From positions 17,478 to 52,029 of the forward strand of contig PFVA01000059.1 of assembly GCA_002790365.1 (NCBI GenBank): 34,552 nt of DNA, given 5' to 3'. This DNA comes from Ignavibacteriales bacterium CG_4_9_14_3_um_filter_30_11 (GTDB lineage: Bacteria > Bacteroidota > Ignavibacteria > Ignavibacteriales > Ignavibacteriaceae). The notes under the pieces were generated by a model. It worked only from the letters and a program-made list of their open reading frames with translations. It was not told the origin of the DNA and made no database searches. The position numbers and the translations under genes are program-made. This document shows positions 3,759 to 6,213 of the stretch, one piece after another. How positions within the stretch are numbered: position 1 is the stretch's first letter; each line of letters opens with the position of its first letter.

Positions 3759-4073
3759 TTGTCAGAATATTCAAAATCAGAAACTTTATTAAATGACTTG
3801 AACTCAATAGAAACCCAGGTTTCTATTCTTGTTTCAAATTGTAGTGACCTTACTACTAGAAATTCAGATATTGAAAAGAAATTAGATAGTGCACAAAAGT
3901 TAATTTCAGATTTAAACCAAAAGATTAAAAATCTTGAGTTGGAATTATCTGAAATTAAAAAAGAAAAAGATAATAGGTCCTTGTTTAATTCAATTTCACA
4001 AACAGAAAGAGCAAATTTAAAAAATAAATTACAGAATTTGCTTACAAGGATTGATTATCATATTAGTTCTTAA
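3759..4073 (+). CDS. Coiled-coil protein, possibly ZapB-like (TTG start)
   Basis: 104 aa heptad-like K/E/L-rich sequence directly between pheT and zapA. Confidence 0.6.
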   Translation: MSEYSKSETLLNDLNSIETQVSILVSNCSDLTTRNSDIEKKLDSAQKLISDLNQKIKNLELELSEIKKEKDNRSLFNSISQTERANLKNKLQNLLTRIDYHISS

Positions 4074-4109: not shown

Positions 4110-4406
4110 ATGGCAGATAAAAAGAAGCTAAAAGTAAAAATATTTGATACGGAATATTCTCTCTTAGTAGAAAACGAAGATATAGCCAAAGAACTAGCTA
4201 TTTATGTAAATAAGGTCATGGAAGAAACAAAAGAAGAACTTCCTGATCAACCGGCACAAACAATTGCAATTATTGCTTGTTTAAATATTGCTTATGATTT
4301 GTTCCTTGAGAAAAATAAAAATCGAGAATTCCTTATCCAAGCTTCTGACATAGTAAAGAAAATAAAATTAAACCTTTACGAACCCGAAATATCCAACCCA
4401 TCATAA
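4110..4406 (+). CDS. zapA: Cell division protein ZapA
   Basis: 98 aa with KLKVKIFDTEYSLLVENEDIAKELAIYVNKVMEE and IAIIACLNIAYDLF, ZapA family. Confidence 0.88.
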   Translation: MADKKKLKVKIFDTEYSLLVENEDIAKELAIYVNKVMEETKEELPDQPAQTIAIIACLNIAYDLFLEKNKNREFLIQASDIVKKIKLNLYEPEISNPS

Positions 4407-4407
4407 T
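4402..4407 (+). promoter_or_regulatory. -10-like element (CATAAT) for the downstream structured RNA
   Basis: CATAAT (5/6 to TATAAT) overlaps the zapA stop and lies ~5 nt before the P1 stem start; no good -35 at 17-18 nt. Confidence 0.35.
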
Positions 4408-4411
4408 CTTA

Positions 4412-4613
4412 TCCGCTCTGTCAGTCCTTAATATATGAAAAACTAACTTTCATACATAGGGAGTTTGACTTACGGCGTCTATTGCAGGCCTCAACTTTCA
4501 TTTATTTGAAAGATTACATTTTTATGTAACAGTGGAAGCAAAAAGCGTTCGAGCTGATTCCCACATTGACTTAATAGGGTTTTTCCTTATTAAAATTGAC
4601 TGGCAGAAGCGGA
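4412..4613 (+). ncRNA. Structured RNA, candidate 6S RNA
   Basis: Closing stem TCCGCT-CTG-TCAGTC (4412-4426) / GACTGG-CAG-a-AGCGGA (4598-4613); rod-extending helices TTAATA(4428-4433)/TATTAA(4588-4593) and GAAAAAC(4437-4443)/GTTTTTC(4579-4585); ~200 nt; downstream of zapA as ssrS is in proteobacteria. Confidence 0.6.
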
Positions 4614-4638
4614 ATTTAAAAAATATATGGAGGTAAAT

Positions 4639-6213
4639 ATGGCAATTACAGAGAATCTGGTGTTTATGATAGGGGCATTGGTTGTAATAATTTTATTATT
4701 CTTTTATTTGGGGTGGTTACTTAATTCAAAAGTTGGTAAAAGAAGTATTTCAACTGCAGAAGAAAAAGCAAAACAAATTTTAAATGATGCTGATAAAGAA
4801 GCTAATAATCTTAAAAGAGAAAAACTTTTAGAAGTTAAAGATGAATGGTACAAAAAGAAAAGTGAATTTGATAAAGAGGTTGTAAATAAAAGGAATAAAT
4901 TCTCTACTCTTGAAAAACAATTTAGTAGTAGAGAAGAAAATATCGAGAAAAAATTTGACCTTGTTCTAAAGAAAGAAAAAGAAGCCAAAGATTTTGAAAA
5001 GCAATTACAAAATCAAAAAGTTGAAATTGAAAAAAGAATTGAAACTATTAAAAAATTAGAAAATGAGCAGAATGAAAAGCTAGAAAAAATAGCAGGACTA
5101 AGTAAAGATGAAGCTAAATCTATGCTTGTTGAAAACTTAATTAAAGATGCAAAAATTGATGCTTTTCAAACTATAAAAGAGTTACACGAACAAGCTAAGA
5201 ACGAAGCAAAGAGAGATGCTCAAAAAATAATTGTTCAAGCAATACAAAGAACAGCGGCTGACCATTCGATAGAGACTACAGTTTCTGTTGTCCAAATTCA
5301 AAGCGATGACATGAAAGGCAGAATAATTGGGAAAGAAGGAAGAAATATTAGAGCTTTTGAAGCAGCAACTGGTGTGGATGTTATTGTTGATGATACACCT
5401 GAGGCAGTTATACTTTCTTCATTCGATCAATTCAGGAGAGAAGTAGCAAGAGTATCATTAGAAAGATTAATTGCTGACGGTAGAATTCATCCAACTAGAA
5501 TTGAAGAGGTTGTAGAAAAAGTTAAAGCTGAATTGGAAGAAGAATTAGTTAGAGATGGAGAAAATACTGTTCTCCAATTGGGTTTGCATAACATGCATCC
5601 AGAATTAACAAAACATATCGGCAGGATGAGATACCGTTCAAGTTACGGACAAAACTTATTGCAACACAGTGTTGAAGTCGCTTATTTAACAGGCATTATG
5701 GCTGCTGAAATTGGATTGGATGTAAATCTAGCTAAACGAGCAGGTTTATTACACGATATTGGTAAAACTGTTGATAAAAGTATTGAAGGTCCTCACGCAT
5801 TAATCGGATATGATCTTACTAAAAAATATAAAGAGAATCCAATTGTTTCTAATGCAGTTGGTTCTCATCACGAAGATATAGAAATGGAACACCCAATTGC
5901 GCCTTTGGTTCAAGCAGCTGATGCTATTAGCGGTGCAAGGCCAGGTGCAAGACGCGAACCTTTAGAAGGTTATGTAAAAAGACTAGAAACATTGGAAGAA
6001 TTGGCAAAATCATTTGACGGTGTTGCTAAAACATATGCAATCCAAGCTGGAAGGGAGGTAAGAGTAGTTGTTGAACAAGATAAAGTTGACGATACACTTG
6101 CAGATAAATTAGCACACGATATTGCAGATAAAATACAAGAAGAGATGGAATATCCTGGCCAAATAAAAGTAACTGTAATAAGAGAAGTAAGAAAAGTTAG
6201 TTATGCCAAATAA
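4639..6213 (+). CDS. rny: Ribonuclease Y
   Basis: N-terminal TM, long coiled coil, KH (GRIIGKEGRNIRAFE), HD domain (LLHDIGK). SD GGAGG at 4629-4633 favours ATG 4639 over the ORF-track start 4627. Confidence 0.95.
   Translation: MAITENLVFMIGALVVIILLFFYLGWLLNSKVGKRSISTAEEKAKQILNDADKEANNLKREKLLEVKDEWYKKKSEFDKEVVNKRNKFSTLEKQFSSREENIEKKFDLVLKKEKEAKDFEKQLQNQKVEIEKRIETIKKLENEQNEKLEKIAGLSKDEAKSMLVENLIKDAKIDAFQTIKELHEQAKNEAKRDAQKIIVQAIQRTAADHSIETTVSVVQIQSDDMKGRIIGKEGRNIRAFEAATGVDVIVDDTPEAVILSSFDQFRREVARVSLERLIADGRIHPTRIEEVVEKVKAELEEELVRDGENTVLQLGLHNMHPELTKHIGRMRYRSSYGQNLLQHSVEVAYLTGIMAAEIGLDVNLAKRAGLLHDIGKTVDKSIEGPHALIGYDLTKKYKENPIVSNAVGSHHEDIEMEHPIAPLVQAADAISGARPGARREPLEGYVKRLETLEELAKSFDGVAKTYAIQAGREVRVVVEQDKVDDTLADKLAHDIADKIQEEMEYPGQIKVTVIREVRKVSYAK

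What the first reader, a model, noticed from the sequence alone, without database searches (positions are those of the whole stretch)
4402..4638. ~200-nt structured RNA between zapA and rny: divergent 6S RNA or an RNase Y leader
Seen: the non-coding gap is closed by a 15-bp stem (4412-4426/4598-4613, one bulged A) and has helices extending it as a rod (4428-4433/4588-4593; 4437-4443/4579-4585). Some of these are mutually exclusive with local hairpins, e.g. TATGAAA(4434-4440)/TTTCATA(4448-4454) and TTAATAGGG(4571-4579)/CCTTATTAA(4585-4593). Known: 6S RNA is ~180-200 nt, rod-like, and proteobacterial ssrS lies just downstream of zapA. Inference: a 6S homologue. Since no Rho-independent terminator separates it from the rny SD (15 nt beyond P1), it may alternatively or additionally be a 5'-UTR regulator of RNase Y, as the rne 5' UTR is for RNase E.
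Basis: partly seen in the sequence, partly recalled or inferred. Interest (0 to 1): 0.6.

Follow-up and report, generated by a model that had tools for sequence, protein, structure and literature searches.

The report
Divergent 6S RNA upstream of rny
The gap between a cell-division gene and an RNA-degrading enzyme gene encodes a divergent version of 6S RNA, a known bacterial RNA that parks the transcription enzyme; the standard database model scores it too low to report, but it sits in the same gene neighbourhood across the phylum Bacteroidota.

Summary
Rfam's 6S model (RF00013) matches 4407-4619 full length at 35.2 bits, E 1.2e-5, below its 46.4-bit cut-off; it is the only such match in the genome. 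Of 80 related rny loci, 79 have zapA upstream with a gap of about 190-260 nt (379 in one). An alignment of 70 gaps supports the structure: 94% of cells paired, 28 of 40 pairs with two-sided changes, 0 of 500 shuffles as good. A covariance model built from it finds one copy per genome in 127 of 149 genomes of the class and 201 of 396 of the phylum. One relative in the same zapA-rny slot passes Rfam's own 6S cut-off, and 6S-Flavo RNAs occupy the same slot. Helix 4437-4443/4579-4585 covaries strongly and is best read as the P2 helix beside the product-RNA start. The 3' bubble hairpin is conserved; the 5' one is not. A role only as rny leader is unlikely: four distant relatives keep the RNA without rny next to it, two with a convergent gene downstream. 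An added cis effect on rny remains open. No expression data were available.

The parts
4407..4619 (+). 6S RNA (ssrS) homologue, span matched by RF00013; mature RNA probably about 4409-4616
   Evidence: cmscan RF00013 positions 1-187, 35.2 bits, E 1.2e-5; only match in the genome; R1 model match 4407-4628 (this sequence is in the training set)
4412..4426 (+). closing stem P1, 5' arm
   Evidence: sequence; 13 pairs tested, all with two-sided changes, 88.5% of cells paired; own arms beat swapped arms in 69/70
4598..4613 (+). closing stem P1, 3' arm, A4607 bulged
   Evidence: as for the 5' arm
4437..4444 (+). P2 / 'downstream' helix, 5' strand (GAAAAACU), in the conserved AA[GA]AACUAAC motif
   Evidence: 97.4% of cells paired; G-C 40 / A-U 28 at one pair; A-U 23 / G-C 13 at another; further pair types across the phylum; 66/70 in swap test
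4578..4585 (+). P2 helix, 3' strand (GGUUUUUC); also the loop and inner pairs of the 3'-bubble hairpin
   Evidence: as for the 5' strand
4571..4593 (+). 3' central-bubble hairpin (9 bp), alternative to or pseudoknotted with P2
   Evidence: mean z -3.2 across relatives; own arms beat swapped arms in 59/70, 56/70 without the P2 strand
4434..4454 (+). 5' central-bubble hairpin; not conserved, probably particular to this sequence and close relatives
   Evidence: mean z -0.9 across relatives; 47/70 in swap test
4459..4490 (+). apical arm, 5' side (GGG...CAGGCC)
   Evidence: helices 3-6, 94-100% of cells paired
4534..4562 (+). apical arm, 3' side (GGAAG..AAAAAGC...CCC)
   Evidence: helices 3-6; matches the conserved GGAAgC block of RF00013
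4491..4533 (+). variable apical hairpins
   Evidence: alignment A1
4426..4444 (+). predicted template for product RNA, start near U4444 (product 5'-AGUUUUUCAU...)
   Evidence: inference from P2 position and the scheme in PMC8876501; not tested
4110..4406 (+). zapA, conserved upstream neighbour
   Evidence: Pfam PF05164 5e-12
4639..6213 (+). rny (RNase Y), conserved downstream neighbour; GGAGG at 4629-4633
   Evidence: Pfam PF12072 3e-51 on the ORF called from 4627; start from sequence

Best explanation
The gap encodes the single 6S RNA of this Ignavibacteria-type genome. Shown by comparison: a rod with closing stem P1, a covarying helix next to the bubble (P2), an apical arm, and a conserved hairpin in the 3' bubble strand that uses the P2 3' strand. 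Inferred: the RNA mimics an open promoter and holds the housekeeping RNA polymerase holoenzyme. When nucleotides return, the polymerase transcribes a short product RNA starting near U4444 into the 5' P2 strand. That displaces the 3' P2 strand, which folds into the 9-bp 3' hairpin and releases the polymerase, as described for E. coli-type 6S RNA. The RNA is probably cut out of, or ended within, a zapA-6S-rny transcript (inferred).
For: RF00013 full-length match and sole match in genome. Covariation with shuffle and slide controls. P2 pair types GAACU/AGUUC, GAACC/GGUUC, GAAUC/GAUUC, AAUCU/AGAUU, UAGAUCC/GGAUCUA across the phylum. One copy per genome in 127/149 and 201/396 genomes. Relative L131 between zapA and rny passes Rfam's RF00013 cut-off, 47.1 vs 46.4 bits. 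6S-Flavo in the same slot and weakly matched by R1. E. coli zapA-ssrS order. Forced P2 fold lies 3.7 kcal/mol above the hairpin fold, so both states are reachable. Release scheme from PMC8876501; product RNAs seen for Bacteroides 6S RNA in PMC7366714.
Against: The window scores below the Rfam cut-off. R1 does not find E. coli ssrS, so the link to classical 6S rests on RF00013, 6S-Flavo and synteny. No transcript, RNA polymerase binding or product RNA is shown. Single-sequence folding favours both local hairpins over P2 (P2 probability 0.005). No promoter or terminator was recognised.
Confidence: 0.93

Rival explanations
1. The RNA is only a 5' leader that regulates rny in cis, for example through RNase Y cutting its own leader, and is no 6S RNA.
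For: No terminator before the rny ribosome-binding site; zapA-RNA-rny order in 79 of 80 related loci and 16 of 20 distant loci.
Against: Four distant relatives lack rny downstream: two have a convergent DAG-kinase-like gene, one ccmF, one ymdB, while zapA stays upstream. RF00013 and 6S-Flavo matches at the same slot.
Confidence: 0.03
2. Dual use: a 6S RNA whose precursor is also the rny leader, so that polymerase binding or processing of the 6S part sets RNase Y output.
For: Phylum-wide linkage to rny, spacing of a few tens of nt with no recognised terminator in the window. In B. subtilis the rny mRNA itself co-purifies with RNA polymerase, about 64-fold enriched, reason unknown (PMC11077062).
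Against: Linkage can be passive operon inheritance with pheT and zapA; it is lost in 4 of 20 sampled loci; no data on transcripts.
Confidence: 0.2
3. P2 and the 3' hairpin form together as a pseudoknot rather than as alternatives (a variant of the best explanation).
For: In the window the loop GUUUUUC is exactly the P2 strand, with 8 flanking pairs possible; both elements are conserved.
Against: The flanking-stem test was close to its null: 50/70 against mean 38, max 43; in some relatives the hairpin stem uses P2 residues.
Confidence: 0.25
4. Chance inverted repeats in AT-rich intergenic DNA.
For: Both strands fold well.
Against: Covariation against shuffles and slides; conserved blocks at 51% median pairwise identity.
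Confidence: 0.005

Closest known systems
6S / SsrS RNA, Rfam RF00013 (E. coli ssrS, B. subtilis 6S-1)
   Same: Length, rod with closing stem, central bubble and apical arm; conserved GGAAGC-type block; zapA upstream as in E. coli; 3' bubble hairpin as in E. coli-type 6S (PMC8876501)
   Different: Below Rfam's cut-off in this genome and in nearly all Bacteroidota searched (0 of 396 over cut-off; 2 of 149 in the class); rny instead of ygfA/fau downstream
6S-Flavo RNA, Rfam RF01685
   Same: Same zapA-RNA-rny slot; weakly matched by R1 in 3 of 6 loci
   Different: RF01685 (108 positions) does not match the window and found mainly one family in the phylum sample
Bacteroides 6S RNA (B. thetaiotaomicron, PMC7366714)
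   Same: Phylum; product RNAs reported there support the mechanism
   Different: That genome was not compared by sequence here
rne 5' UTR autoregulation
   Same: Structured RNA ahead of an RNase gene
   Different: Here the RNA persists without the RNase gene downstream in some relatives

Membership tests
6S RNA (RF00013) | Score at or above the Rfam gathering cut-off | tested here: not met
   35.2 vs 46.4 bits. This is a curation threshold, not a biological feature; a relative in the same slot passes it
6S RNA (RF00013) | Full-length match of the consensus sequence and structure | tested here: met
   Model positions 1-187, E 1.2e-5 in 451 nt and 1.5e-5 in the whole genome
6S RNA (RF00013) | About 180-220 nt rod: closing stem, central bubble, apical arm | tested here: met
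6S RNA (RF00013) | Usually one copy per genome | tested here: met
   One match in each genome that matched
6S RNA (RF00013) | Binds housekeeping RNA polymerase holoenzyme | not testable with these tools
   Needs co-immunoprecipitation or gel shift
6S RNA (RF00013) | Templates short product RNAs that trigger release | not testable with these tools
   Start near U4444 is a prediction only
6S RNA (RF00013) | Discrete stable transcript | not testable with these tools
   No transcriptome available
6S-Flavo (RF01685) | Match to the RF01685 model | tested here: not met
   No match up to E 10; none in the genome
6S-Flavo (RF01685) | zapA-RNA-rny position | tested here: met
   rny next to RF01685 in 6 of 6 loci; zapA upstream in the two checked
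cis-regulatory leader of rny only | RNA always on the rny strand directly upstream of rny | tested here: not met
   16 of 20 distant loci; 4 without rny

The most novel reading that the evidence does not exclude
In Bacteroidota the 6S RNA is built into the rny transcript, so that one structured RNA both sequesters RNA polymerase and sets the level of the main RNA-degrading enzyme, tying RNA synthesis to RNA decay.
Probability: 0.18. Interest if true: 0.7.

Novelty: new member of a known kind. Interest (0 to 1): 0.36.

Why it matters
It fills an annotation gap: Rfam's 6S model put no match over its cut-off in 396 Bacteroidota genomes sampled, and only 2 of 149 in this class. The model and the synteny rule (look between zapA and rny) allow 6S RNA to be found across the phylum. 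The covarying P2 helix and conserved 3' hairpin make the product-RNA release switch testable outside E. coli and Bacillus. The steady linkage of an RNA polymerase inhibitor to RNase Y raises a testable link between RNA synthesis and decay.

Tried and rejected
Rfam scan at gathering threshold: no hit in the window or at the RNA in 20 relatives, which alone would have suggested no 6S. SpR19 minus-strand match (E 5.3): chance. Pseudoknot test by flanking stems: inconclusive. Promoter search by third-position conservation at the end of zapA: no hyperconservation. A sigma-70-like site at 4596-4624 overlaps P1, and the number of such sites is below chance expectation (1 found, 3.1 expected). U-run after P1 as terminator: modest T enrichment at positions 2-3 in relatives, absent in the window. 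R1 on E. coli ssrS: no match. Wehner 2014, the main 6S survey, is not held, so prior knowledge of the rny linkage could not be excluded; searches of held papers found none.

Full report
Observation. Every pairing in the finding is present at the stated coordinates. P1 is 15 pairs with A4607 bulged. The strand folds to -63.3 kcal/mol, z -5.5 against dinucleotide shuffles. The reverse strand also folds well (z -4.6), so energy alone does not decide the strand or the function.

Database scan. No Rfam family reaches its cut-off in the window. With permissive filters, 4407-4619 matches RF00013 (6S) over its full length at 35.2 bits, E 1.2e-5, against a cut-off of 46.4. In the whole 2.29-Mb genome it is the only RF00013 match.

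Relatives. A search with the RNase Y protein returned 80 loci, mostly labelled Ignavibacteria, Melioribacter or Bacteroidetes. In 79 of them zapA lies upstream of rny with a gap mostly of 190-260 nt (the remaining locus starts too close to rny to tell). Seventy gaps below 90% identity, median pairwise identity 51%, were aligned by sequence alone. RNAalifold predicted 27 pairs, 19 with compensatory changes. For a 40-pair structure that I named, 94.1% of cells pair, 28 pairs have changes on both sides and the covariation score is 0.357; no shuffle of 500 reached any of these values. Sliding the partners by 1-3 columns dropped pairing to 37-50% and the score to 0.06-0.10.

Which helices are real. 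In an arm-swap test between distant sequences, own arms paired better than swapped ones in 69/70 for P1, 66/70 for the 4437-4444/4578-4585 helix, 59/70 for the 3' bubble hairpin and 60/70 for the apical arm, but only 47/70 for the 5' bubble hairpin and 45/70 for the outer rod extension. The 3' hairpin is more stable than shuffles across relatives (mean z -3.2), the 5' hairpin hardly so (-0.9). The helix 4437-4444/4578-4585 has G-C in 40 and A-U in 28 sequences at one pair, A-U in 23 and G-C in 13 at another. In distant families it appears as GAACC/GGUUC, GAAUC/GAUUC, AAUCU/AGAUU and UAGAUCC/GGAUCUA (that alignment was fitted to the structure, but the complementary words are visible in the raw letters).

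Link to 6S. A covariance model of the 70 gaps (R1) finds one match per matching genome in 127 of 149 genomes of the class and 201 of 396 of the phylum. On the same genomes RF00013 gave 8 of 149, 2 over the cut-off, and 67 of 396, none over the cut-off. Where I compared coordinates they were the same places. One genome (L131) has the RNA between zapA and rny and passes Rfam's own 6S cut-off at 47.1 bits. Flavobacterial 6S-Flavo loci lie directly upstream of rny in 6 of 6, with zapA upstream in the two examined, and R1 matches three of them weakly. E. coli also has zapA followed by ssrS. R1 does not find E. coli ssrS, so this last link is by RF00013 and position.

Leader or gene. Twenty distant R1 loci, chosen for family spread and not at random, were fetched. 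All have zapA upstream. Sixteen have rny downstream; four do not. In two of those four the next gene is convergent, in one it is ccmF, in one ymdB. The RNA therefore persists without rny, which argues against a role only as rny leader. It does not exclude an added effect on rny, because in most loci, including the window, the RNA ends a few tens of bases before the rny start, and in the window no consensus terminator was found.

Mechanism. Described 6S RNAs are released when a product RNA invades the 5' bubble strand and the 5' strand of P2; in E. coli types this lets a 9-bp hairpin form in the 3' bubble (PMC8876501). The window has the parts of that switch: a covarying P2 and a 9-bp 3' hairpin that uses the P2 3' strand. 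The forced-P2 fold is 3.7 kcal/mol above the hairpin fold. The start near U4444 is an inference. Whether P2 and hairpin alternate or coexist as a pseudoknot is unresolved. Product RNAs are reported for Bacteroides 6S RNA (PMC7366714).

Novelty. 6S RNA is known in Bacteroidetes: 6S-Flavo (PMC2864571) and Bacteroides (PMC7366714), with a bacterial survey by Wehner 2014 that I could not read. This is a new member of a known kind. What seems not to be described in the papers held is the zapA-6S-rny arrangement and the P2 covariation in this lineage, but absence from this library is weak evidence. In B. subtilis the rny mRNA binds RNA polymerase for unknown reasons (PMC11077062), which makes the linkage worth a test.

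Noticed in passing
4627-4641: The mechanical rny ORF starts at ATG 4627, but GGAGG at 4629-4633 and an in-frame ATG at 4639 suggest the real start is 4639.
   Followed up: partly
3759-4073: A 104-aa coiled-coil ORF between pheT and zapA has a weak ZapB-like Pfam match (0.00056, below cut-off), recalling the zapB-zapA-6S order described for proteobacteria (PMC7641849).
   Followed up: no
L142:2225-3070: In one relative without rny next to the RNA, the next gene is ymdB-like (PF13277, 1e-99); from general knowledge ymdB neighbours rny in Bacillus, so rny may have been lost or moved there.
   Followed up: no
L144:1467-1654, L146:1466-1655: Flavobacterial 6S copies have a long U-run right after the closing stem (GGCUUUUUUUAU), as if the closing stem serves as a terminator; the window lacks it.
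   Followed up: partly
G307, G349, G366 (family f50): Three genomes of one genus have sub-threshold RF00013 matches but are not among the listed R1 matches; their 6S may be a different form or in a different place.
   Followed up: no
L003, about 2618-2997: One relative has a zapA-rny gap of 379 nt, with extra sequence after the RNA.
   Followed up: no
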